Shown here in pieces: positions 1-10,900 of a stretch of DNA of 64,000 nucleotides; within the stretch, counting starts at the first letter, position 1, and every line of letters starts with the position of its first letter. Location of the stretch: the NCBI RefSeq assembly GCF_003991905.1, contig NZ_RSCL01000001.1, positions 806,654-870,653 on the forward strand, given 5' to 3'. The stretch is from Dulcicalothrix desertica PCC 7102. GTDB taxonomy: Bacteria > Cyanobacteriota > Cyanobacteriia > Cyanobacteriales > Nostocaceae. Position numbers and translations under genes: made by a program. The notes beneath the pieces were generated by a model. That model searched no databases, was not told the origin of the DNA, and saw only the letters and a program-made list of their open reading frames with translations.

Positions 1-226
1 TTTCTAACCATAGCCAAGTTTTATCAGCGCTAGAAAGATTATTGATTAGGCGCAAGTTATCTGCTGCTTTTTGTAATTCCTCTGCTTCTATTTTAATACC
101 TGCTTCTTGTGCTGCATGTGTAATAATCTTGCGAGTGATTATTTCCTCGACAATAATGCTCACTTGACAAGATAACTTCATTTGATAAAGTAACTCATCA
201 TTAGATATATTAAGAGATTCCAACAT
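1..226 (-). CDS. PpiC/SurA-like peptidylprolyl isomerase family protein (partial)
   Basis: Reading leftward from an ATG at 226, the frame stays open to the window edge (75 codons), so the C-terminus is missing. An AGGAG ribosome site lies a few bases upstream. The visible part is helical, beginning MLESLNISNDELLYQMKLSC and continuing with a charged EAGIKIEAEELQKAAD stretch. I recognise this as the N-terminal region of the cyanobacterial PpiC-type proteins usually found beside HlyD and C39 exporter genes. It follows the HlyD gene on the same strand with a 78-base gap, so it is probably the last visible gene of the exporter operon. Such proteins may assist folding or release of exported peptides; that role is inference. 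The catalytic parvulin domain, if present, lies outside the window. Confidence 0.6.
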   Translation of the reverse strand, partial: MLESLNISNDELLYQMKLSCQVSIIVEEIITRKIITHAAQEAGIKIEAEELQKAADNLRLINNLSSADKTWLWLE

Positions 227-304: not shown

Positions 305-1636
305 TTAAAGCTTTAATCCATCTTTTTGCAGCTTTTTAAATGGGTCTAGCAGAAAATCAATTATGCGTCGCTGTCTGACAATTACTTCAGCAGTTGCTGT
401 TTGACCTGGTGTTAAATAAACACGTTTATTTTGGTTTTGAATATAAGTTTGTTTCAGCGTAATTTCTAATTCATAATTTTCTTGCTTTCCTTGAGGGGCT
501 TCTACAATTTTCGAGTCCGGTGAAATCCAGCTTAAATTACCTTCTAGTACTCCATATTCTTGAAATGGATAGGCATCAAATTTTAGTTTGACTGGCATTC
601 CTATACGCAAAAAGCCACTTTCAGTACTGGGCATTTCGGCTCTAAATATAATTGGTACTCCTTTTGGCGCCACTTGAGCAACTGTTTGTCCTGGTTGTAG
701 AACTGCTCCAGCATGGTTTACACTTAATTGAAAAATCGTGCCATCAGTAGGAGCGAATAGTGTTCGCTGCTGCATTTGCACTTGTAAGGAGAAAATTTGT
801 TTTTTCGTTTGAGCAATTTCTGATTGCACATCTACATGCTGAGATTGTAGTTCTTTAAACTGTTTTTGAGTTTCTAAAATTGCTAGTTCACCTGTACGAT
901 TATTGCGTTGATTAGTGCTTTTTTGTTTGCCAATTTCGGTAGTCGCTTGTTCGATATCTGACAGAGCTTGCTCGCTTAATCGTTTGCGTTCTAACATAAC
1001 ACCTTGTACTTCTTCTAATTTACTCTTGGAAATGGCGCCTTGTTTCCACAAAAATTTATGACGCTTAACATCGTTTTCTGCGACAGATAGACGCCCTTTT
1101 TCAAGGATGTGTACTTTTTTACTAGAGTTGACTCGTTGTTGAATTTGGTTAAGTTGAGCGAGTTGCTCAGAATCTTGAGCTTGATTTTGTAGTTGCTGAG
1201 TACGACTCGACGCTTGCAATTGGTTTTTTAGTAATTCAATTTGATTAATACGATTATGCAAACCCTCAAGCTTTGCCTGAGCTTGTTGTAGTTCAGCGCG
1301 CGCTAATTCTGAGTCTAGTTTGAGTAAAATTTGCCCTTTGGTTACAATTTGACCTTCTTTAATATTAATAGCTGTAACCGTTCCAGATACTGGTGCATCT
1401 AATTTCAAAACTTTACCTTGAGGCTCAAGTCTTCCTCTTGCACTACCTGTCTCGTCAACTTTAGATAGCATTGCCCAAGGTAAAACTGTTGCTGCAAATA
1501 CTATAAGAAAATAAACCAGTCCGCGCGTCCAAACAAGCGGTAAAGCATCAATTATTTCCTTGGTGACAGTAGACCATTCATCAATTACAGATTTAGAAGG
1601 TTTTACTTGACGATTTTGATTTAGGGGTTCTTGCAT
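305..1636 (-). CDS. HlyD-family membrane fusion protein of the C39 exporter
   Basis: This 443-residue protein is the periplasmic adaptor that joins an inner-membrane ABC exporter to an outer-membrane channel. A single membrane helix lies near residues 38-58 (GLVYFLIVFAATVLPWAM). A lipoyl/barrel-sandwich half-motif follows (about 78-112), then a long Gln-rich coiled coil (about 112-295), and the returning half-motif with the C-terminal barrel (about 300-430), containing FAPTDGTIFQL. Length and order fit the HlyD family. It starts six bases after the stop of the C39 ABC transporter gene, so the two are almost certainly co-transcribed and form one type I-like export machine. The cargo is probably the double-glycine peptide encoded at 5532. 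Confidence 0.92.
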   Translation of the reverse strand: MQEPLNQNRQVKPSKSVIDEWSTVTKEIIDALPLVWTRGLVYFLIVFAATVLPWAMLSKVDETGSARGRLEPQGKVLKLDAPVSGTVTAINIKEGQIVTKGQILLKLDSELARAELQQAQAKLEGLHNRINQIELLKNQLQASSRTQQLQNQAQDSEQLAQLNQIQQRVNSSKKVHILEKGRLSVAENDVKRHKFLWKQGAISKSKLEEVQGVMLERKRLSEQALSDIEQATTEIGKQKSTNQRNNRTGELAILETQKQFKELQSQHVDVQSEIAQTKKQIFSLQVQMQQRTLFAPTDGTIFQLSVNHAGAVLQPGQTVAQVAPKGVPIIFRAEMPSTESGFLRIGMPVKLKFDAYPFQEYGVLEGNLSWISPDSKIVEAPQGKQENYELEITLKQTYIQNQNKRVYLTPGQTATAEVIVRQRRIIDFLLDPFKKLQKDGLKL

Positions 1637-1642
1637 GATAGA

Positions 1643-4438
1643 TTAATTTGGAACTTGTTGTTGGTTGAGGTAGAAGTACAGACCACGTTTAGCCATTAAT
1701 TGATTGTGATTTCCGCTTTCAACTAGTAAGCCTTTGTCTAGTACTAAAATTAGGTCAGCGTTGCGTACTGTTGAGAGACGATGGGCAATTATTAGGGTTG
1801 TTCTTCCTTTAAGGATTTTGCTGAGGTTATTTTGAATTATTCGTTCTGACTCTGTGTCAAGACTGCTTGTCGCTTCGTCTAAAACCAATAATTGGGGATT
1901 TCCTAATAATGCACGCGCGATGGCAATACGCTGTCTTTGTCCACCAGAAAGCATTCCACCACCTTCACCAATTTGAGTTTCGTAACCCATTGGTAGTGAG
2001 TTGATAAATTGATGGGCGCCTGCTAGTTGACTTACTTCAATAATTTCTTCTAGCGGAGCTTCTGGGTAAGCAATACTAATGTTCTCGTGGATAGTACCAC
2101 CAAACATAAATGTATCTTGGTCAACTACACCTATTTGTTGTCGCAGCGAACGTACAGAAACAGTACTAATATCGGCGCCATCAATAAGTATTTTTCCATC
2201 GGTAGGTAAATAAAGTCCTAGAAGTAACTTGGCTAGTGTTGTTTTCCCAGAGCCACTACGCCCTACTAATGCTACAATCTGACCTGGTTGTACTTCAAAG
2301 TTAATGTTTTCCAGAATGTTGGCATCAGCATCTTTTTGATAACGAAATGTAACGTTTTTGAAACAAACATGACCGTTAATTGGAGGTAGAAAGTTAAGAT
2401 TACTAGATTGTAAATCTTCTTCTGGTTTAGCTTCAATTACATCATTGATTCGCTCAATTGCAATAATTACCTCCTGCAATTCATCCCATAACCTTGTTAT
2501 TCTTTGGAAAGGGTTGATGACATTACCAAGCAACATATTAAAAGCGACTAACTGCCCAATAGTCAGTTCATTGTGAATTACCTGCCATGCTCCTAACCAT
2601 AATAATCCGATAGTAGCCAACATTTCAATAGATGAGCTAATACTTTGGATTACGTTTCCAATTAGTTGCCCAGAAAAACTAGCTTTGATTGACTTCCCAA
2701 ACAATTCTTCCCATTTCCAACGTACTGTTTGCTCAATAGCCATCGATTTGATAGTGCTAATTCCTGTTAAAGATTGAATTAAATATCCAGTCTCTTCATT
2801 AGAAGTAGCAAATATTTTTCGTGAAACACGTCGCAGAAAAGGGGTAGCACACAATGCTAGTAATATATATGGTGGTAAAATTATTAAAGTTAGTAGTGTT
2901 AGTCTCCAACTGTACCAAAACATTAATCCCAAATATACAAATACTGTAAGCATATCCATAAATATAGATAGTGCTTGGTCTGTAAAAAACTTTTGGATTT
3001 TTTGATTTTCTTGAACGCGCGAAATAATATCTCCTACGTATCGTGACTCAAAGTAAGAGAGAGGTAATCGAAAAGTATGATTAATAAAACCAACAATCAG
3101 CGCTAAATCAACTCGATTTGCAGTATGGTCTAACAGGTATTCTCTTAGTGCAGTTAAAGCAATTTGCATTACTCCAAAAATTAATAATCCTAGTCCGATA
3201 GCAGTCAAGGTTAACTCACTCCGCTGAACTACAACTCGGTCTAAAATTAACTGAGTAAATAGCGGTGTAACTAACCCAAAAATCTGAAGTAAAACAGAAG
3301 CAAATAATACCTCAATCAATACAATTTTATGAGGTCTTAAGAGTTTTAGAAATACCCATAGTGGCTGATTTTTCTCATCAACGTCTTTCAGTACAACAGT
3401 AGGTGTTAGTAATAAAGCGTACCCAGTCCATCCAGCTTGAAATTCTTCATTGGTAAGAACACGTTGACCAATTGCTGGGTCTGCAATCACAACGTACTTA
3501 GGCGCCACTTCATAAACTACAATATAATGCTTCCCCTCCCAGTGAGCAATTGCAGGTAAGTTGTGCGTTCCCAATTTATCGAGACTAGCTTTTACAGGTC
3601 GAGTGGCAAACCCAACACTCTCTGCCGAGAAAGCCAAATTTCTTAGCGATATACCATTGCGGTCAAACTCGGCAATAGAACGCAGATGATTTATACTAAA
3701 ATCCTTACCCCAATAACGACCTATCATTACCAAACAAGCGGCGCCGCAATCAGCAGCACTTTGCTGCTCAAACAAAGGATAGCGACGAATAACTTTTTGC
3801 CACCAATGGCTTACTTGTAAAGTGGGGCTAGGAAAATAAGCCTGATTAATTTTAGATTTGGGATTGGGGATTTTGCTCTGCACATCAACAGATTGGCGAA
3901 TTGCAACTTCCGACTTAGAATTTGAAAATTCCTCTGTTTTTTTATTTTTGGTTGGTACGGCGCCCGACTGGTGAAATTGAACTATCAATAAATCTTTTTG
4001 AATTGCTTGATGATGTAAATGATTTTTGACATTAGGATGTTGTTTGAGTAAAGGCTTTAACAAATCACCATTGAGGTAACAAAGTTTTAAATTTAATGAA
4101 GCTTTAGCAGAGTACGCTTGAAAATGCTTATCTGAAAATAAAGTTACTTCACCAAATGACTCACCTTCAGACAGAGTAACGATTAAATTGTCAGCTTTAT
4201 CGAATAATCTGACTTTGCCAGCAAGAACCAAGTAAATGCCAACTGCCCCATCTTCTGCCTGCCAGAATTGTTTTCCTACTGGCGGCTCAACGATTTGAAT
4301 TTTTTCATGTAGAGACGAGATATATCGCGTCTCCACTCCAAACATATGAGCTAGCTGTTGACTGATATTTTCTAAATCCAAAACAAATTTCGTAGATTTC
4401 ATGACCTTATTAAAAAAACGTATCACAGCACCTTCCAC
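1643..4438 (-). CDS. Peptidase C39 ABC exporter with N-terminal cyclic-nucleotide-binding-like domain
   Basis: This 931-residue bacteriocin-type exporter should cut a double-glycine leader and pump the peptide across the inner membrane. In order it has a cNMP-binding-like fold (about 45-140, with LSEGESFGEVTLFSD), a variable linker, a C39 peptidase domain with C231 (SAADCGAACL), H304 (GKHYIVVY) and D320 (IADPAIG), a transmembrane domain (about 370-660), and an ATPase domain with Walker A GRSGSGKTT, signature LSGGQRQR and Walker B LLVLDEATSSLD. All three peptidase residues are present, so cleavage activity is expected. The longest frame starts with GTG at 4438; an in-frame ATG at 4402 (MKSTKFVLD) is an alternative, and neither has a strong ribosome site. 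It lies 20 bases after the HTH gene. Confidence 0.95.
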   Translation of the reverse strand: MEGAVIRFFNKVMKSTKFVLDLENISQQLAHMFGVETRYISSLHEKIQIVEPPVGKQFWQAEDGAVGIYLVLAGKVRLFDKADNLIVTLSEGESFGEVTLFSDKHFQAYSAKASLNLKLCYLNGDLLKPLLKQHPNVKNHLHHQAIQKDLLIVQFHQSGAVPTKNKKTEEFSNSKSEVAIRQSVDVQSKIPNPKSKINQAYFPSPTLQVSHWWQKVIRRYPLFEQQSAADCGAACLVMIGRYWGKDFSINHLRSIAEFDRNGISLRNLAFSAESVGFATRPVKASLDKLGTHNLPAIAHWEGKHYIVVYEVAPKYVVIADPAIGQRVLTNEEFQAGWTGYALLLTPTVVLKDVDEKNQPLWVFLKLLRPHKIVLIEVLFASVLLQIFGLVTPLFTQLILDRVVVQRSELTLTAIGLGLLIFGVMQIALTALREYLLDHTANRVDLALIVGFINHTFRLPLSYFESRYVGDIISRVQENQKIQKFFTDQALSIFMDMLTVFVYLGLMFWYSWRLTLLTLIILPPYILLALCATPFLRRVSRKIFATSNEETGYLIQSLTGISTIKSMAIEQTVRWKWEELFGKSIKASFSGQLIGNVIQSISSSIEMLATIGLLWLGAWQVIHNELTIGQLVAFNMLLGNVINPFQRITRLWDELQEVIIAIERINDVIEAKPEEDLQSSNLNFLPPINGHVCFKNVTFRYQKDADANILENINFEVQPGQIVALVGRSGSGKTTLAKLLLGLYLPTDGKILIDGADISTVSVRSLRQQIGVVDQDTFMFGGTIHENISIAYPEAPLEEIIEVSQLAGAHQFINSLPMGYETQIGEGGGMLSGGQRQRIAIARALLGNPQLLVLDEATSSLDTESERIIQNNLSKILKGRTTLIIAHRLSTVRNADLILVLDKGLLVESGNHNQLMAKRGLYFYLNQQQVPN

Positions 4439-4452
4439 AAGAACAAAACAAC

Positions 4453-4480
4453 CATCCGCTACATCCGTTGCATCCGTTGC
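4453..4480. repeat. ATCCGTTGC nonamer tandem repeat at a gene end
   Basis: Three tandem copies of an ATCCG(C/T)T(A/G)C unit occur here. On the minus strand they read GCAACGGATG and encode the last residues (LPLQRMQRM) and stop region of the HTH gene. Related tracts lie at 34184-34212, 34252-34282 and 57000-57031, two of them also at gene 3' ends. Confidence 0.75.
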
Positions 4481-4983
4481 AGTGGTAAATCCTCAATTTT
4501 AATCCTTTGCAAATGGATATGTTGATTTTCTTCAACTTTATCTTTCCTTGGTCGAGTCGAAAGACCCATTTCTTTAAGCAGACGATTAATATGGCAACTA
4601 CTAACTTGAACTCCAATTTCTTTTACCAAATGCTTTGCTAACCATTGCGCTGTCCAACGTCCAAATGGATAACCATACTCGCGCGGACTATGACTCACCA
4701 GTTCCTTTAAACGCATAAGATAAGAATCATTCACAGTTTTTGGGCGCCCGATACGACGGTCATCCCATAGATGTGCCTTTCCTGTTTGTGCAATCACAAT
4801 CCAATAACGCGCGGTTTCTGGACAGCAACCTAAAGCTTTACAAATTTCCGCCTGTGATTTCCCCGCATCAGCAAACAATATAATCTCTATGCGCTGACGA
4901 TATTCCGCGCGCAAATTAGTTTCCAGGTTTTTTAGCAAAAGTTTTCTTTGAAAAGGCGTTAAGTACAAGCTAAGATTTTCCAT
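4459..4983 (-). CDS. Helix-turn-helix protein derived from an IS630-type transposase N-terminus
   Basis: The 174-residue product has a homeodomain-like HTH (about 30-65, KSQAEICKALGCCPETARYW), a linker with a GRPKTV AT-hook-like motif (about 78-83), and a winged-helix segment (about 95-150) ending in VSSCHINRLLKEMGLSTRP. This is the DNA-binding half of an IS630/Tc1-like transposase. No DDE catalytic domain follows: the frame ends in a repeat tract and then runs into the exporter gene. It is the first gene of the leftward exporter operon and diverges from the precursor peptide gene 548 bases away. That position suggests a domesticated transcriptional regulator, although a decayed transposase is possible. 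Its C-terminal nine residues come from the ATCCGTTGC repeats. Confidence 0.75.
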   Translation of the reverse strand: MENLSLYLTPFQRKLLLKNLETNLRAEYRQRIEIILFADAGKSQAEICKALGCCPETARYWIVIAQTGKAHLWDDRRIGRPKTVNDSYLMRLKELVSHSPREYGYPFGRWTAQWLAKHLVKEIGVQVSSCHINRLLKEMGLSTRPRKDKVEENQHIHLQRIKIEDLPLQRMQRM

Positions 4984-5531
4984 AAAAAATCCCTCCTACA
5001 AAGCTTTCAATCTAATACCCCAATTTCTTTGGGTAATATATGCCTCTCTTTCGGACTCAAAACACCTGATATTCTGCAATCTGTTACAAAGCTTTACAAT
5101 ATTTCATAAAAAACCTTGAGAAAACTGTCACAACTGTAGTTCCGCTGATGTGCCGTTGCAATACCGCCTATAACCTCCAACTTCATAATGCATGGCGTGC
5201 GAATACGGGAGCAAGTGGCACATAAAAAACGTAGGGTGCGTGACGCTACAGAAACATTTCAACGTAGTTATAAGACTTATAGCGTCACGCACCGACTTAT
5301 GGTTGTGACAATATCGTAAATCCTACAATTTAAAGAATTAAAACAAAACATCTTTAATTATGCATAAACAATAAACTTTAAAACCTTGATTTTATTATTT
5401 TAAATTTACACAATAGTAATTAAATTACGTCTGCTATCGTTTCTAGGATTGTTAGTTTCTAACTAGTACCTCAAGTAGCACGTTATTTATAGCTAATCTA
5501 ATTCAAAAAAATTTCATCTAAGAGGAAAACA
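4984..5531. other. Divergent intergenic region upstream of the precursor peptide gene
   Basis: No convincing gene is seen in these 548 bases. The region separates the leftward exporter operon from the rightward precursor gene, so promoters for both should lie here. It holds a palindromic repeat (5235-5293), an AT-rich leader, and a short GTTAG-TTT-CTAAC hairpin near 5450. I could not assign promoter boxes with confidence. Confidence 0.6.
5235..5293. repeat. GGTGCGT-type palindromic repeat (copy 1)
   Basis: A 14-base arm at 5235-5248 (GGTGCGTGACGCTA) pairs perfectly with 5280-5293 (TAGCGTCACGCACC) across a 31-base loop. Two relatives at 24838-24897 and 57095-57153 keep the outer GGTGCGT/ACGCACC but differ in the inner stem while remaining complementary. 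That covariation indicates selection for, or templated copying of, the hairpin. Confidence 0.85.
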
Positions 5532-5783
5532 ATGGCTACTATCAAAATTTCCAATTTGCGTCCGACTGGCGCCGAACTTTTTTCAGATTCCGAAAGCTAC
5601 ATGAATGAACTGGGTGACAGCGAACTAGTTAGTGTCAATGGTGGACTAACTTCCCCTCTTTGCATTGTAACTGCTATTAGAGTCGGATATGCTGCTGCTC
5701 GTTCCTCACAGCAATGTGCTATAGGCATAGCAGGAGCAATTGGTGGTGCTGGTCGCTTGGTGGAACGTCTACGCAAAAAATAA
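5532..5783 (+). CDS. Double-glycine RiPP precursor peptide, probable lanthipeptide
   Basis: This 83-residue peptide has a classic leader for C39 exporters: an acidic helix MNELGDSELVSVNGG ending in Gly37-Gly38. The core (39-83) begins LTSPLC and has Ser/Thr at 40, 41, 47, 58 and 59 and only two Cys, at 44 and 62. Both Cys sit in the same (S/T)-S-x-x-C context (TSPLC and SSQQC), suited to two small thioether rings. The middle is Gly/Ala/Ile rich and the tail is basic (RLVERLRKK). A clear AGAGGA ribosome site precedes the ATG. The next two genes are a kinase and a HopA1 protein, and the divergent operon encodes the cognate exporter type. Structure and activity of the product are inference. Confidence 0.88.
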   Translation: MATIKISNLRPTGAELFSDSESYMNELGDSELVSVNGGLTSPLCIVTAIRVGYAAARSSQQCAIGIAGAIGGAGRLVERLRKK

Positions 5784-5793
5784 CCTGAAATGA

Positions 5794-5847
5794 GAGCATT
5801 CCAAATGTGTAATAAGCCTCTAGGCTATGTACAAAATTGGGATGCTC
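5794..5847 (+). promoter_or_regulatory. Intercistronic stem-loop between precursor and kinase genes
   Basis: The arm GAGCATTCCAA pairs with TTGGGATGCTC (one G-U), and further inside UGUGUA pairs with UGUACA (with wobbles) and AGCC with GGCT around a TCTA loop. The 54-base hairpin fills most of the 95-base gap between the precursor stop and the kinase start. There is no T-run after it. Such hairpins after RiPP precursor genes commonly act as leaky terminators or RNA-stability elements, making more peptide than enzyme. That function is inferred. Confidence 0.65.
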
Positions 5848-5878
5848 GCCTAAGCCAAATTTATAATTAAGCAGAAAA

Positions 5879-7060
5879 ATGACACTTTTTTTAAGTTCAA
5901 AAAACGTTTTTGATTATTTACTCGCAGAAAAAATTTGCACTCAAGAAGAGCAAGATTTGAACAAAGTTGAATTTAAAGATGCCAAAAATTTTAATTTGTT
6001 ACTGACTTTACAAGATGGGCGTAAATTACTTGTCAAGCAGGAACGTTACAACCAAGAAGGAAAAACTGTCGGCGAATTTTTAGGTGAATGGCAAATTCAA
6101 GAATTTATTGTCAAAACTTCTCAACTTTCCCACATTCGCCCATTAATCTCTGAAATGCTTCATTTTAATGCAAATCATTCAATTATTATCTTCAACTATC
6201 TCAATGACTATGGCGATGTCACTGATTTTTATGTAAAGAAGAATGCTTACCCAACCACAATTGCAGCTTCAATTGGAAAAGCTTTAGCTACAATCCATCG
6301 TGACACTTTAGATTGTCAGGAATTTCAAAACTTTTTATCTCAAAATCTTGAGGATGTAACCATTGACAAAGTTACTAGCTTTATTCATGGAATAGAACGA
6401 ATTAGTCCAGAAGTTTTTGGGCTGGTTCCTGCTGATGGTTTGAAATTCTTTGCTCTCTATCAGCGCTATGATAGTCTGGGAAAAGCAATTGCAGAACTCA
6501 ATACTGCCTTCAAACCTTGTTGTCTAACCCACAACGACCTCAAGCTTAACAACATCCTTTTACATCATGATTGGGAGCAAGCTATCTCTAAAAAAGAGCA
6601 ACCAATTAATAGTATTATTCGGCTGATTGATTGGGAACGCGGCGCCTGGGGAGACCCTGCATTTGATTTAGGGATGTTGATTGCTAGCTATCTACAAATT
6701 TGGCTCGATAGCTTGGTTGTTAATAAATCTATTGATATCGAGGAATCTTTACGCCTAGCTATGATACCGCTTAACATACTCCAACCGTCTATTGCTGCCC
6801 TTGCTAAAGCTTATTTCAATAACTTTCCAGAAATGATCGAGCGTCGTCCTAATTTTTTGAAACGAGTTGTGCAGTTTTCTGGCTTTGCTTTAATTCAACA
6901 AATTCAGGCAATGCTCCAGTACCAAAAATCATTTGGCAATACAGGTATTTGTATGCTTCAAATTGCCAAGAGTTTATTGTGCCGTCCAGAAGAATCAATC
7001 CCAACTATTTTTGGTGTGGCAGAATTTGAACTCACTCACCTCAATGATTCTCTTACTTAA
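5879..7060 (+). CDS. APH-fold kinase, class V lanthipeptide/thioamitide type
   Basis: This 393-residue protein has the aminoglycoside-phosphotransferase/choline-kinase fold. Visible elements are a beta-strand lysine in KLLVKQE (about 47-53), a catalytic loop LTHNDLKLNN with D220, and the metal-binding D251 in RLIDWERGAWGDPAFDLG. In class V lanthipeptide (lexapeptide, cacaoidin) and thioviridamide-type pathways a kinase of this fold phosphorylates precursor Ser/Thr, and a HopA1-family lyase then eliminates phosphate. Here it lies between a double-glycine precursor and a HopA1 gene, with only 26 bases to the latter, so the same role is inferred. A small-molecule kinase or resistance enzyme is the alternative, but the context argues against it. 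Confidence 0.8.
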   Translation: MTLFLSSKNVFDYLLAEKICTQEEQDLNKVEFKDAKNFNLLLTLQDGRKLLVKQERYNQEGKTVGEFLGEWQIQEFIVKTSQLSHIRPLISEMLHFNANHSIIIFNYLNDYGDVTDFYVKKNAYPTTIAASIGKALATIHRDTLDCQEFQNFLSQNLEDVTIDKVTSFIHGIERISPEVFGLVPADGLKFFALYQRYDSLGKAIAELNTAFKPCCLTHNDLKLNNILLHHDWEQAISKKEQPINSIIRLIDWERGAWGDPAFDLGMLIASYLQIWLDSLVVNKSIDIEESLRLAMIPLNILQPSIAALAKAYFNNFPEMIERRPNFLKRVVQFSGFALIQQIQAMLQYQKSFGNTGICMLQIAKSLLCRPEESIPTIFGVAEFELTHLNDSLT

Positions 7061-7086
7061 CTAGTTTTTAGTCGCACCCTAATATT

Positions 7087-8181
7087 ATGCAATTATTGGA
7101 TTTTCCTCAAAGTCAACCGCAAACTTCTGTGTTAAATCGAGTGCTGGAGTCTTTTAAAGATATCGCTAGCAATGTTAAGATTAACTCCAATTTCTGTATT
7201 AGTCACCCAGCTTATGAACCCTTTGAACTTCCTGCTGAGGTAGTAACCCGTTTTCAGCGAATACCTTTAGAACTTCAAAATAAGTATTTGAGTTTACAAC
7301 TGCAAAGTTTTATTTACGGTATCTATTACAACGGTTCTATGCAAGTAGGCGGAAGTGCAACAAACCTAGCATTTGGTCAAAACCAAGAAAACAATACTTT
7401 TTTGGGAATCAACCTAGAGTTTTATAAGCGTCTACATACAAGTAATAGCGGTGAAGGTTATTTTGAACCTGGTTGGTTGGTACTGTGTCAGGAAAGTGAT
7501 GGTAGTCTTGCCGTAAAAAGGGGTGGTTTAACTTTGCATATCGACCGCCAACAACATCTACAACTAAGTGAACAATGCGCTAATATCGGCGATTTAGTTT
7601 CCATCCGGATGCCTCGGAATTTAGTTCAAAATGGATTTTATGTGGCAGTTAGCAATGCTGGTGCGAATACTTATCCTCAAACAGTAAGAATTTACTTTAA
7701 TTTAAGTCCCGAAGGTGCGGTCATCGTTATGGAAAGCCTTACACGGCAACTAAATGAAACTAAAATTCCTTTCACATTTAAAGTACTATATGACCCTTCT
7801 GACTACAAACGCTACGACTCTGGAGTATTATACTTTGAGCGCGGCGACTATAAAACAGTTCTACAAGTACTTAAGAATATTTATATAGAAAACCAGTTTC
7901 ATTTTCGTAAGGATATACCTCTGTTCACAAAATTGCTGGCGCCAGGGCTTAGTATAGCAGAAGAGCCAAATTCTAAATTTGCTGACTCAGAAAGCTTTGG
8001 TACAAATCGTTGCCAAATAATTGCCAATGCGTTGCTAGAAGCTCGACAACAAGGCAATGAATCAATAGATTATCGAATGAATTGTATCCACAAACATTTT
8101 TTTTTACTGGGAATTGACTTACAACGACCTTACCTTAACGCCAATTCTCAAGATATATATACAACTTTTGACCTATCCTAA
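7087..8181 (+). CDS. HopA1-family protein, putative phosphoserine/threonine lyase
   Basis: The 364-residue product matches the HopA1 effector-like family. Recognisable parts are DPSDYKRYDSGVLYFERGDY (about 237-256), IPLFTKLLAPGLSIAEEP (about 277-294) and SFGTNRCQIIANAL (about 302-315). In class V lanthipeptide and thioamitide clusters the HopA1 partner removes phosphate from kinase-modified residues to give dehydroamino acids. No separate LanC-like cyclase, flavin decarboxylase or YcaO is present, so ring closure would be spontaneous, done by this protein, or supplied from elsewhere. The gene follows the kinase closely and is probably co-transcribed with it. The family name is confident; the activity is inferred from context. 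Confidence 0.82.
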   Translation: MQLLDFPQSQPQTSVLNRVLESFKDIASNVKINSNFCISHPAYEPFELPAEVVTRFQRIPLELQNKYLSLQLQSFIYGIYYNGSMQVGGSATNLAFGQNQENNTFLGINLEFYKRLHTSNSGEGYFEPGWLVLCQESDGSLAVKRGGLTLHIDRQQHLQLSEQCANIGDLVSIRMPRNLVQNGFYVAVSNAGANTYPQTVRIYFNLSPEGAVIVMESLTRQLNETKIPFTFKVLYDPSDYKRYDSGVLYFERGDYKTVLQVLKNIYIENQFHFRKDIPLFTKLLAPGLSIAEEPNSKFADSESFGTNRCQIIANALLEARQQGNESIDYRMNCIHKHFFLLGIDLQRPYLNANSQDIYTTFDLS

Positions 8182-8280: not shown

Positions 8281-9738
8281 ATGTCCAAGCGTACAAAGAA
8301 ACTCAAGACACTCATTAGATGGCTAACCTGGTCGGGAGTTTTGGCTACAACTTGCGCTGGAAGCTGGCTAGTTTATGTCCATCAAAAACGACCAACTGAG
8401 TCAGTGGCGCCTGTTGTTACTGTAGAACGCGGCAACATTGAAACTACAATTAATGAGAGTGGTATCCTTGAACTGCGTGGTCAGCAAACCCTTAAATCTC
8501 CATCAGAAGGCGCCGTTGAACAAGTATTAGTGAAACTTGGAGATAGAGTCAAAGCCAAGCAACCATTAATTATTTTGCGAAACCCCGAACGTCAAACTAT
8601 TCTCGCTAACCAGCAGTTGCTAATTCAAAAACAGCAACTTACCCTGGCAAATAACCGTCAGAAAGTAGCTGAAGCACAGAAAAAGTTAGAAGTAGCTAAA
8701 AAGGAGAATAACACTAATAAACAATTACAAATTCAGAAACAGCGACTGACCTTAAAAGGTAATCGCCAAAAAGTTATTGAAGTTGAAGAAGAACTTAAAG
8801 ACGAGGAAAGGAAATTTCAGGAACTTGAAGCTCTGGATAAAAAAGGCTTTATTCCCAAAAATGAACTCCGCACCCAAGATGAACAACTTCGCCGTGCAAA
8901 ATCTGCTGTACGCGCGGCTCAGTTAACTGTTAATAGCGATACATTTGAACTGCAAAACCTTCAAATTGAACTGCAAAATACCCAACAGCAAATGCAAAGC
9001 AAAATCATGGAAGCTGAATCTGCTTTACGGGAAGCTCAGTTAGCAGTTAATACTGAAACCCGTGAACTTGAACGGCTTCAATTGGAGTTACAAAAAATTC
9101 AGCAGCAACTCCAGAATAATGTTCTGAGTGCCCCTATTGATGGTGAGGTTCTCGATATTAAAATCAAAGACGGCGAAGGAGTTCAGCTACGTACCAACAT
9201 GCTTACTATCGGCGACCCTACCCAAGAACTTGTATCACTTCAACTTTCTACTCTAAATGCCGCTAAAGTCCGCGTCAATCAATTAGCTAGCATTAGTATT
9301 ATCGGTCCTAATCCTCAGTCGTTCGAGGGACGAGTACAGAGTTTATCTCCCGTTGCAACCGCATCTTCTGGGAGCGAAAATCAAAACAACCAACAATCAG
9401 GGCAACCTGGACAGGCAACAGTATCCGCAAAAGTGCGACTAAATAAACCTTCTCGCAAGTTGATTCTTGGTAGCCAAGTAAACGTCGAAATTGTTTTACA
9501 ACAGCGTCAAAATGTAGTGGTTTTAAATACAGAAGCAATTCAGCGCTCTGAAGAAAAGCTATATGTTTTAGTACAGGATAAACAAGGCAAAACTCACAAG
9601 AAAAATATCACTTTAGGTATAGAGGGGTTAACTGAAGTAGAGGTGACATCTGGTTTACAACCTGGTGAACAAGTAGTGTTACCTACAACTGATTCCAATT
9701 CTCCTCAAGACAAATCACAAGAAAGTGACAGCGAATAA
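8281..9738 (+). CDS. MacA/HlyD-like periplasmic adaptor subunit
   Basis: This 485-residue adaptor has one N-terminal membrane helix (about 14-31), a first lipoyl half-motif (about 60-95), a long coiled coil with two similar Gln-rich segments (about 100-285), the returning half-motif (LSAPIDGEVLDI), a beta-barrel, and a membrane-proximal domain ending GLQPGEQVVLPT. It is longer and more MacA-like than the HlyD protein at 305-1636, so it should serve a different transporter. The MacB-type permease follows immediately and a TolC-like gene lies downstream. Together they make a tripartite efflux set. It could export the modified peptide past the inner membrane or provide self-immunity; neither can be read from the sequence. 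Confidence 0.9.
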   Translation: MSKRTKKLKTLIRWLTWSGVLATTCAGSWLVYVHQKRPTESVAPVVTVERGNIETTINESGILELRGQQTLKSPSEGAVEQVLVKLGDRVKAKQPLIILRNPERQTILANQQLLIQKQQLTLANNRQKVAEAQKKLEVAKKENNTNKQLQIQKQRLTLKGNRQKVIEVEEELKDEERKFQELEALDKKGFIPKNELRTQDEQLRRAKSAVRAAQLTVNSDTFELQNLQIELQNTQQQMQSKIMEAESALREAQLAVNTETRELERLQLELQKIQQQLQNNVLSAPIDGEVLDIKIKDGEGVQLRTNMLTIGDPTQELVSLQLSTLNAAKVRVNQLASISIIGPNPQSFEGRVQSLSPVATASSGSENQNNQQSGQPGQATVSAKVRLNKPSRKLILGSQVNVEIVLQQRQNVVVLNTEAIQRSEEKLYVLVQDKQGKTHKKNITLGIEGLTEVEVTSGLQPGEQVVLPTTDSNSPQDKSQESDSE

Positions 9739-9739
9739 C

Positions 9740-10900
9740 ATGAGTATCACACCTTTTGATCTACTAAATCTTACTATTCGTTCTTTAAGCGGCAACCCTT
9801 TACGCTCCACCCTAACTACCTTGAGTGTTTTTATAGGTGTAGCTGCGGTGACAGCAACGCTTCAAGTCGGTAGCATTAGTCGGTCAGTTATTGCCCGTCA
9901 AATTGCAGAGCGAGATGCACCCCAAGCTACAGTATTCCCAGAGTCTCAACTTAGGTTAGAAGACATCAAATTTTTGCAACAAAGGCTTGTGGGGTTAAGA
10001 GCAATTAGTGCCTCCAGTTTCCCAACTTCTTCTCGAACTCTATTTCAAGATCAGGAAGCTAATCCTTTAATGCTGGGTGTCTCCCAAAACTTTTTGCTTA
10101 CATCAGGTAAACAATTAGTAAGGGGGCGATTTTTTACAAAAGCAGATTTTGTTAGCTATCGACCTGTGGTAGTAATTGATCAATTTCTTGCAAATAAACT
10201 TTTTAAAAACCAAAAGCCTATCGGTCAGCGTATCTATACCGAACGCCGACCTTATATTGTTGTGGGGGTGGTGAAAACTAGTGTTAGTAGCAGTGACGCA
10301 CCTGAAGGTGAGATAATGATACCAATGTCAGTTTACAACGCTTTAATGGGTAGTCGGCATATTGGAGCTATTTGGATGCGTCCTCATAAGCTCGAAGACC
10401 TAAAACATTTGGAAGATAAAGCAAAAAACCTTTTGGAGCAGCGTTTTCCAGGTCAAAAATTTGATGTTAGGAACAATATTGAAGACATTTTAGAGCAACA
10501 AAAAACTCTTGAACTCGTTTCACGGGCACTAGCAGCAGTAGGAGTTATTTCTTTATTAGTGGGAGGTGTTGGAATTGCTAATATTACCATTGCCACTGTA
10601 TCGGAGCGTACTTCTGAAATTGGTCTAAAGCTGGCAATTGGCGCCACAAAACGAGACATAATGTTGCAATTTATTCTTGAAGCGACGCTTTTAAGTCTAT
10701 TAGGGGGAACTGTAGCAATATCTATGGTGCATGGGTTGACGTTGGTAGTTGCTAATAGCTTTGATTTACCCTATCAATTTGAAAGCAACACAGGCGCCTT
10801 ATCTTTAGGGTCAGCGCTATTAGTGGGAGTAGGCGCCGGTTTTCTTCCAGCTCTGCGTGCGAGCCAGTTAAACCCTGTTACAGCTTTGCGTAGCACTTAG
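9740..10900 (+). CDS. MacB/FtsX-type ABC transporter permease (no ATPase domain)
   Basis: The product (about 386 residues from the ATG at 9740) is the permease half of a MacB-like transporter. It has an N-terminal membrane helix (NPLRSTLTTLSVFIGVAAV), a large periplasmic domain (about 45-260), and three C-terminal helices including SLLVGGVGIANITIATV followed by ERTSEIGLKLAIGATKRDI, the FtsX hallmark. In MacB an ATPase domain is fused in front; here it is absent and no separate ATPase gene lies nearby. The ATG is one base after the adaptor stop; a GTG at 9725 would overlap it. The pair is certainly translated together. An ATPase encoded elsewhere must be assumed. Confidence 0.9.
   Translation: MSITPFDLLNLTIRSLSGNPLRSTLTTLSVFIGVAAVTATLQVGSISRSVIARQIAERDAPQATVFPESQLRLEDIKFLQQRLVGLRAISASSFPTSSRTLFQDQEANPLMLGVSQNFLLTSGKQLVRGRFFTKADFVSYRPVVVIDQFLANKLFKNQKPIGQRIYTERRPYIVVGVVKTSVSSSDAPEGEIMIPMSVYNALMGSRHIGAIWMRPHKLEDLKHLEDKAKNLLEQRFPGQKFDVRNNIEDILEQQKTLELVSRALAAVGVISLLVGGVGIANITIATVSERTSEIGLKLAIGATKRDIMLQFILEATLLSLLGGTVAISMVHGLTLVVANSFDLPYQFESNTGALSLGSALLVGVGAGFLPALRASQLNPVTALRST

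What the first reader, a model, noticed from the sequence alone, without database searches (positions are those of the whole stretch)
5532..8181. Candidate class V-like lanthipeptide locus in a cyanobacterium
Seen: a double-glycine precursor is followed by an APH-fold kinase with intact catalytic residues and a HopA1-family protein. Divergent to it is a C39-peptidase exporter operon. Known: a separate kinase plus a HopA1 lyase is the dehydration machinery of class V lanthipeptides (lexapeptide, cacaoidin) and thioamitides, described mainly in actinobacteria. Inferred: this locus makes a thioether peptide with a leader removed by C39. No LanC, flavin decarboxylase, YcaO or reductase is present, so the pathway may be a minimal version.
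Basis: partly seen in the sequence, partly recalled or inferred. Interest (0 to 1): 0.85.

Follow-up and report, generated by a model that had tools for sequence, protein, structure and literature searches.

The report
Cyclase-free cyanobacterial lanthipeptide locus
This cyanobacterial gene cluster probably makes an exported peptide whose sulfur-bridged rings are written into the peptide's own sequence, so that no dedicated ring-closing enzyme is needed.

Summary
In detail: a double-glycine precursor (5532-5783), an LxmK-like kinase (5879-7060) and a HopA1/LxmY-like lyase (7087-8181) lie divergent from an HTH, C39-exporter, HlyD, PpiC operon. Cyanobacterial loci of this kind are in print (Eyles 2021 Family 1A; Liang 2022 type-B), so the pairing is not new.

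What I add:
(1) Both core cysteines sit in (Ser/Thr)2-Xxx-Xxx-Cys, the motif from which lanthionine formed without a cyclase in rosin. This spacing is enriched among relatives: 21 against 2.7 expected in 48 dissimilar cores.
(2) The four lyase active-site residues named for CaoY are kept in 61 of 64 lyases of precursor loci; the Lys is lost in 16 of 16 lyases of one precursor-less clade, 10 of them beside phylloquinone genes.
(3) Seven of 8 named orthologous loci carry an aldo/keto reductase (in one only fragments); the window and its closest relative lack it.
(4) 173 of 209 family cores lack Cys, so 'thioether' fits this locus, not the family.

Best reading: a class V-type dehydratase without LanC, LanD or a recognised LanX, giving a cationic peptide with two i,i+3 rings. 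No chemistry was tested.

The parts
5532..5783 (+). precursor peptide, 83 aa; leader residues 1-38 (5532-5645) ending GG, core residues 39-83 (5646-5780)
   Evidence: leader profile shared by 209 peptides in 61 of 83 loci
5649..5663 (+). first ring motif, Thr40-Ser41-Pro-Leu-Cys44
   Evidence: sequence; spacing enriched in the family; same in the near-identical core of Calothrix sp. PCC 7103
5703..5717 (+). second ring motif, Ser58-Ser59-Gln-Gln-Cys62
   Evidence: kept as SSQQC in 5 of 8 named orthologous loci
5794..5847 (+). RNA hairpin between precursor and kinase genes, probably sets the precursor:enzyme ratio (role inferred)
   Evidence: -26.5 kcal/mol, z -4.0, 0 of 200 shuffles as good; the same hairpin in L122
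5879..7060 (+). LxmK-like kinase (APH fold), proposed to phosphorylate core Ser/Thr
7087..8181 (+). HopA1/LxmY-like lyase; R201, K232, R242, Y249 correspond to CaoY R187, K219, R229, Y236
4459..4983 (-). HTH protein (IS630-like HTH, no DDE domain over cut-off), first gene of the exporter operon, possible regulator
   Evidence: a homologue lies within 400 nt upstream of C39 on the same strand in 29 of the 30 loci that have both
1643..4438 (-). peptidase-C39 ABC exporter with N-terminal cNMP-binding domain; expected to cut after GG and export
   Evidence: Cys and His segments (DCGAAC, GKHYIVV) seen in the translation, their catalytic role recalled
305..1636 (-). HlyD-type adaptor
1..226 (-). start of a PpiC-type protein that continues outside the window (L121:9152-9880)
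   Evidence: best NCBIfam TIGR04500 'putative peptide maturation system', 78 bits, below its cut-off of 180
8281..10900 (+). MacA-like adaptor and MacB-type permease in the place where relatives carry the reductase; possible self-protection, membership unsure
   Evidence: same pair in L122

Best explanation
The locus makes a class V-type lanthipeptide without a ring-closing enzyme. The LxmK-like kinase phosphorylates Ser/Thr of the core (up to 5: Thr40, Ser41, Thr47, Ser58, Ser59) and the LxmY-like lyase removes phosphate, giving dehydro residues. Cys44 then adds to residue 41 and Cys62 to residue 59, unaided or speeded by the kinase-lyase complex, because each Cys sits in a (Dhx)2-Xxx-Xxx-Cys motif that pre-orders the reaction. 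The result is a cationic peptide (net +6) with two i,i+3 thioether staples. C39 removes the leader at GG and the C39/HlyD machine exports the peptide, most likely as a bacteriocin. Shown by computation: gene content, family membership, intact catalytic residues, motif enrichment, conservation. Inferred: dehydration, ring pattern, unaided closure, leader removal, export, activity.
For: The kinase is nearest to LxmK. The lyase matches PDB 9dk1_B by profile (E 2.2e-10) with the R, K, R and Y residues aligned; 9dk1-3 are the lexapeptide dehydratase LxmKY. The CaoY spacing K-10-R-7-Y is kept exactly, the spacing of the first R to K is one residue shorter (31 against 32). In CaoY K219A lost and R187A nearly lost elimination and R229Q was inefficient (PMC9486802 section 4). 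R-K-R-Y is present in 61 of 64 lyases of precursor loci; the 3 exceptions are second copies beside an intact pair. Both Cys in the motif: 20 of 200,000 shuffles of this core. In 48 Cys cores under 50% identity the motif is seen 21 times against 2.66 expected (0 of 5000 shuffles); other gaps (0, 1, 3-8) give 0-5 against 2.0-2.8. Without the window core, in the first locus set: 9 against 1.92, 0 of 5000. In rosin the Lan ring from this motif closed without a cyclase (PMC12291118 section 8). C39 occurs in 42 of 61 precursor loci and 1 of 22 precursor-less loci. No LanC at the locus.
Against: No product has been seen. The motif was noticed in the window core before it was tested, and the larger set is weighted to near relatives of the window. 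Five LanC-like proteins elsewhere in the genome could act in trans. 28 of the 48 dissimilar Cys cores lack the motif, and 173 of 209 family cores have no Cys. Six precursor-less loci keep the four lyase residues. The motif does not force one stereochemistry: rosin and thermolanthin have DL rings from it. The kinase scores far below the LxmK cut-off. The predicted structures are of low confidence (mean pLDDT 58 lyase, 50 kinase), so the fold match is weak support.
Confidence: 0.6

Rival explanations
1. Dehydration as above, but the rings are closed in trans by one of the LanC-like proteins encoded elsewhere in the genome, or by an unrecognised LanX-like protein such as the kinase-like protein downstream in the exporter operon.
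For: 5 LanC-like matches in the genome, in frames of 690-1158 aa; a kinase-like protein at L121:5467-6576 lies two genes beyond HlyD's neighbour PpiC; LanC-like domains near 2 of 83 related loci, L069 and L074.
Against: tblastn with one LanC query finds none in 81 of 83 loci (a single divergent query can miss some); none of the 5 genome matches is on the window's contig; the kinase-like protein matches no LxmK model at E 1e-3 (whether the library holds a LanX model was not checked); the motif needs no cyclase.
Confidence: 0.16
2. The peptide is dehydrated but not ringed: dehydro residues are the end product, or in relatives are reduced to D-residues by the aldo/keto reductase; the two Cys form a disulfide.
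For: 173 of 209 family precursors have no Cys in the core though the lyases of precursor loci are intact in 61 of 64; the reductase follows the lyase in 15 of 83 loci and occurs in 7 of 8 named orthologous loci.
Against: Cys spacing is strongly biased to (S/T)2xxC; the window genome has no close reductase.
Confidence: 0.15
3. An unmodified or only phosphorylated class II-type bacteriocin with a double-glycine leader; the kinase and lyase act on something else.
For: Weak Pfam match of the precursor to Bacteriocin_IIc (E 0.1); precursor-less kinase/HopA1 loci exist, 22 of 83.
Against: In the one precursor-less clade the lyase has lost its Lys (16 of 16), whereas with precursors it is kept (61 of 64); a family precursor lies just upstream of the kinase in 8 of 8 named orthologous loci.
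Confidence: 0.07

Closest known systems
Class Va lanthipeptides (lexapeptide LxmK/LxmY, cacaoidin CaoK/CaoY, rosin RosK/RosY)
   Same: separate APH-type kinase and HopA1-type lyase; same catalytic residues; in rosin a (Dhx)2-Xxx-Xxx-Cys ring closes without a cyclase
   Different: no Cys decarboxylase LanD or recognised LanX here, so no AviMeCys end expected; GG leader with C39; cyanobacterial
Class Vb lanthipeptides (mSmoA)
   Same: kinase plus HopA1 lyase, thioether rings only
   Different: class Vb uses LanC (PMC12291118 introduction); none at this locus
Family 1A of Eyles 2021 / type-B LanA of Liang 2022
   Same: cyanobacterial HopA1 plus phosphotransferase pair, GG leader (Eyles), variable core; I infer that this is the same family
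   Different: Eyles saw no conserved Ser, Thr or Cys in the cores; here a conserved spacing motif is found in part of them. Their member lists are in supplements I could not read
Cytolysin-like and bibacillin-like two-component class II lantibiotics
   Same: hydrophobic cationic peptides with non-overlapping rings, the first from Dhx-Dhx-Xxx-Xxx-Cys (PMC11343131 passages)
   Different: LanM (recalled; for bibacillin) instead of a kinase/lyase pair; a single precursor at the window locus, although relatives carry unlike precursors in tandem
Thioamitides (thioviridamide, thioholgamide)
   Same: kinase plus HopA1 dehydratase
   Different: no YcaO match in this genome, no decarboxylase at the locus

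Membership tests
Class V lanthipeptide (general) | stand-alone LanK kinase next to PF17914 LanY lyase | tested here: met
   the kinase is below the LxmK equivalog cut-off (71 against 315 bits)
Class V lanthipeptide (general) | lyase active-site residues named for CaoY | tested here: met
   R201, K232, R242, Y249
Class V lanthipeptide (general) | precursor with Ser/Thr and Cys in the core | tested here: met
   5 Ser/Thr, 2 Cys
Class V lanthipeptide (general) | (methyl)lanthionine in the product | not testable with these tools
   needs mass spectrometry
Class Va | LanD flavoprotein decarboxylase in the cluster | tested here: not met
   PF02441: 2 matches in the genome, on contigs C14 and C2, none on C1
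Class Va | LanX kinase-fold cyclase | tested here: inconclusive
   no dedicated LanX search was possible; one kinase-like protein in the exporter operon outside the window is unassigned
Class Vb | LanC cyclase in the cluster | tested here: not met
   PF05147: 5 matches, all on other contigs
Thioamitide | YcaO protein | tested here: not met
   0 matches in the genome; 5 of 14 control genomes ring
Eyles Family 1A | cyanobacterial, GG leader, HopA1 plus phosphotransferase | tested here: met
   membership in the published network not tested (supplement not readable)
Two-component lantibiotic | two cooperating precursors | tested here: not met
   one family precursor at the window locus; 6 more sit at a second locus in the same genome, L036

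The most novel reading that the evidence does not exclude
A third kind of class V lanthipeptide ('Vc'): kinase and lyase only, no cyclase gene, with ring topology written in the substrate as (Ser/Thr)2-Xxx-Xxx-Cys staples, so that cores can diversify freely. In the ancestral form an aldo/keto reductase turns leftover dehydro residues into D-amino acids; the window lineage has shed that step.
Probability: 0.4. Interest if true: 0.78.

Novelty: new variant of a known kind. Interest (0 to 1): 0.6.

Why it matters
Published mining put cyanobacterial HopA1/kinase clusters on the map but left their products open, because the cores showed no conserved Ser, Thr or Cys. A conserved spacing explains how part of these clusters could make rings without a cyclase, and gives residue-level predictions (41-44 and 59-62) with a simple co-expression test. 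If right, the enzyme pair is a two-gene system for stapling variable hydrophobic peptides. The precursor-less clade with a changed lyase is a natural control and a separate puzzle.

Tried and rejected
Thioamitide reading rejected: no YcaO match in the genome. HTH gene as a stray IS fragment set aside: a homologue precedes C39 in 29 of 30 loci that have both. Transfer from actinobacteria was not tested: the tree holds cyanobacterial rows only. AlphaFold2 models were made for both enzymes from 9 sequences each and are low in confidence (mean pLDDT 58 lyase, 50 kinase). I searched only the lyase model: the top three hits are LxmKY chains (E 6.5e-8 to 1.3e-6), but TM by query is 0.31-0.33 and rmsd about 12 A, so I count it lightly. 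The promoter scan gave fewer sites than shuffles (6 against 10.1) and is not used. The reductase search had no control and was repeated with relatives as controls. Paper searches on these points; judged by titles and starts of abstracts, none listed a paper on the ring motif or the reductase in these cyanobacterial loci (one search listed 20 of 342, 20 of 43, 2 of 6). Papers seen: PMC9486802 abstract, section 4 parts 1-2 of 3, section 10; PMC12291118 abstract and sections 5, 8, 10; PMC8153245 passages and section 16; PMC11343131 and PMC13060208 passages only; the rest as listings. Supplements were not readable, so the Family 1A and type-B member lists were not compared.

Rows dropped and biases: one search kept only precursors with GG after residue 30, so a few leader hits were left out, 7 of 209 peptides had no G motif near the profile end and were cut there, and a few of the 209 are doubtful frames (for example L075:10656-10850, which overlaps another precursor). 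For the tree frames were trimmed to 372 residues. The 83-locus set is not random: 78 loci were picked by me from the best-scoring HopA1 places listed (146 of 388 genomes of the window's order had a match), plus two own paralogous loci, two plasmid loci and the window. Contig and locus ends can hide genes. The tree is a quick one (SH-aLRT only); the lyase-Lys loss is one clade, hence about one event. The genes beside the precursor-less clade were named from one representative per gene cluster.
Full report
Observation. The three genes lie as described: precursor 5532-5783, kinase 5879-7060, HopA1-family protein 7087-8181, all +. Divergent on the - strand are an HTH gene, a C39 ABC exporter and HlyD. 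The DNA left of the window shows that the operon goes on with a PpiC-type protein, a second ABC protein and a kinase-like protein. The window lies on contig C1 of an 11.4 Mb genome; the nearest named relative found is Calothrix sp. PCC 7103, kinase 89% identical.

Enzymes. NCBIfam places the kinase nearest to LxmK (71 bits, below the cut-off of 315). The HopA1 protein is PF17914 at 214 bits, and a profile of 44 relatives finds PDB 9dk1_B at E 2.2e-10, named as the lexapeptide dehydratase LxmKY. For CaoY, R187, K219, R229 and Y236 are named as active-site residues; K219A lost and R187A nearly lost elimination, and R229Q was inefficient (PMC9486802). The window protein has R201, K232, R242, Y249: K-10-R-7-Y as in CaoY, first R one residue closer; all four align in 9dk1_B.

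Comparative set. I examined 83 loci: the window, two plasmid loci, two own paralogous loci and 78 loci from other genomes of the window's order. A kinase homologue and a HopA1 gene occur in 83 of 83. A leader profile grown from two seeds finds 209 precursors in 61 of 83 loci. C39 is near in 42 of these 61 and in 1 of the 22 others; PpiC-type genes in 52 of 61 and 0 of 22; the aldo/keto reductase in 15 of 61 and 0 of 22.

A natural control. Of 64 lyases in precursor loci, 61 keep R-K-R-Y; the three others (L071, L092, L099) belong to second pairs whose kinase is degenerate too and which sit beside an intact lyase. Of 22 lyases in precursor-less loci, 16 have lost the Lys (to Q, E or H) while the five kinase residues checked stay intact; the other 6 keep all four. 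A sixth kinase residue, K222, differs in two of the four precursor-less-clade kinases in alignment A2 (L057, L096). The 16 form one clade (SH-aLRT 98), so this is about one event; alignment columns around the residues are gap-free. Twelve of the 16 have a YbgC/FadM-like thioesterase gene next to the lyase, 10 have menE, and 9 have menA, menC and an isochorismate synthase. The window genome has one such pair (L037). The catalytic Lys is thus kept where there is a peptide to dehydrate and lost in the one clade without; the 6 scattered loci without a precursor found may be limited by contig ends or by the leader profile.

Ring motif. The core LTSPLCIVTAIRVGYAAARSSQQCAIG... has two Cys, each preceded by (Ser/Thr)2-Xxx-Xxx. 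Only 20 of 200,000 shuffles of this core give both. In the 83-locus set, 34 distinct Cys cores hold 11 motifs against 1.9 expected; without the window core 9 against 1.9; 0 of 5000 shuffles reach either. With added relatives (67 distinct Cys cores; 48 under 50% identity), 21 against 2.66, 0 of 5000; gaps of 0, 1 and 3 to 8 residues give 0-5 against 2.0-2.8 expected, the highest being gap 3 with 5 against 2.5. The test was prompted by the window core, and the added relatives were found by similarity to window proteins. SSQQC is kept in 5 of 8 named orthologous loci (L122, L123, L124, L125, L128). In rosin, this motif closed to lanthionine after deprotection without enzyme, and the kinase-lyase complex sped it moderately (PMC12291118); the same motif forms the first ring of cytolysin-like peptides (PMC11343131 passages). 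Hence a cyclase is not required in principle.

Reductase. In 7 of 8 named orthologous loci an aldo/keto reductase match is found: directly after the lyase in L123-L128 (only two fragments in L127, cut by the locus end in L128) and after three precursors in L129. Calothrix PCC 7103 (L122) and the window lack it and have MacA/MacB-type genes there. A whole-genome search with the NIES-4105 reductase finds nothing in the window genome, in G391 (whose precursor equals that of L122) or in G388, a weak match in G353 (1.2e-13), and matches of 1e-160 or better in 5 of 9 genomes (G390, G393, G344, G389, G380). On the lyase tree the window and L122 sit among reductase loci (SH-aLRT 88 and 92, not starred), so I read loss, not gain. 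Its role (dehydro residues to D-residues) is my inference. Loci with a motif core have the reductase in 6 of 9, other precursor loci in 9 of 52 (Fisher p 0.005), without correction for kinship.

What does not fit. 173 of 209 family cores have no Cys and 33 of 61 precursor loci have none in any family core, so the family as a whole cannot be called lanthipeptides; their products may be linear dehydro or D-residue peptides, or carry other cross-links. 28 of 48 dissimilar Cys cores lack the motif.

Regulation. A strong hairpin lies between precursor and kinase genes (z -4.0) and is kept in L122; it may limit enzyme relative to precursor. The region upstream of the precursor is largely conserved with PCC 7103 apart from a stretch holding a 14-base inverted repeat.

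Prior work. Eyles 2021 (PMC8153245, section 16) reported cyanobacterial Family 1A; Liang 2022 reported type-B precursors. The locus type is known. The motif, the lyase-loss clade and the reductase history were not met in the searches named in Tried and rejected. Class Va is set apart by LanD and LanX, Vb by LanC; neither LanD nor LanC is at this locus and no LanX is recognised, so I call it class V-like and file it in neither subgroup.

Noticed in passing
L037 and 15 further precursor-less loci (L057, L058, L062, L068, L077, L079, L082, L089, L090, L094, L096, L101, L103, L105, L112): A kinase plus HopA1 pair without family precursor, in 10 of 16 beside phylloquinone (men) genes, with kinase residues intact and the catalytic Lys lost from the lyase in 16 of 16: a repurposed pair of unknown role.
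   Followed up: partly
L071, L092, L099, L100: A second kinase (and, in L071, L092 and L099, a second lyase) with degenerate catalytic residues near an intact lyase and Cys-containing precursors; recalls the kinase-fold cyclase LanX.
   Followed up: no
window 4459-4983: An IS630-like HTH protein without a recognised DDE domain; homologues are the gene before C39 in 29 of the 30 loci that have both. Looks like a domesticated transposase domain used as regulator.
   Followed up: partly
L076:10665-13024, L114:4834-10732: Asn/Thr/Val-rich repetitive cores, most without Cys, at loci with the reductase, e.g. ...ASNVNVNASNVNITV.
   Followed up: no
L059, L060, L080, L111: Unlike precursors alternate in tandem, suggesting two-peptide products.
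   Followed up: no
window 5235-5293: Perfect 14-base inverted repeat, arms 31 bases apart, in a stretch missing from the PCC 7103 locus; MITE-like.
   Followed up: no
L036 (own genome C29): A second locus in the same genome with six family precursors, kinase, intact lyase, PpiC, HlyD and C39.
   Followed up: partly
L121:4218-5162: A stand-alone phosphotransferase-like gene near the exporter operon, outside the window; resembles macrolide phosphotransferases by eye only (no family search run).
   Followed up: no
L127:12309-13466: The reductase and PpiC matches are in pieces, as if the genes are decaying in Nostoc desertorum.
   Followed up: no
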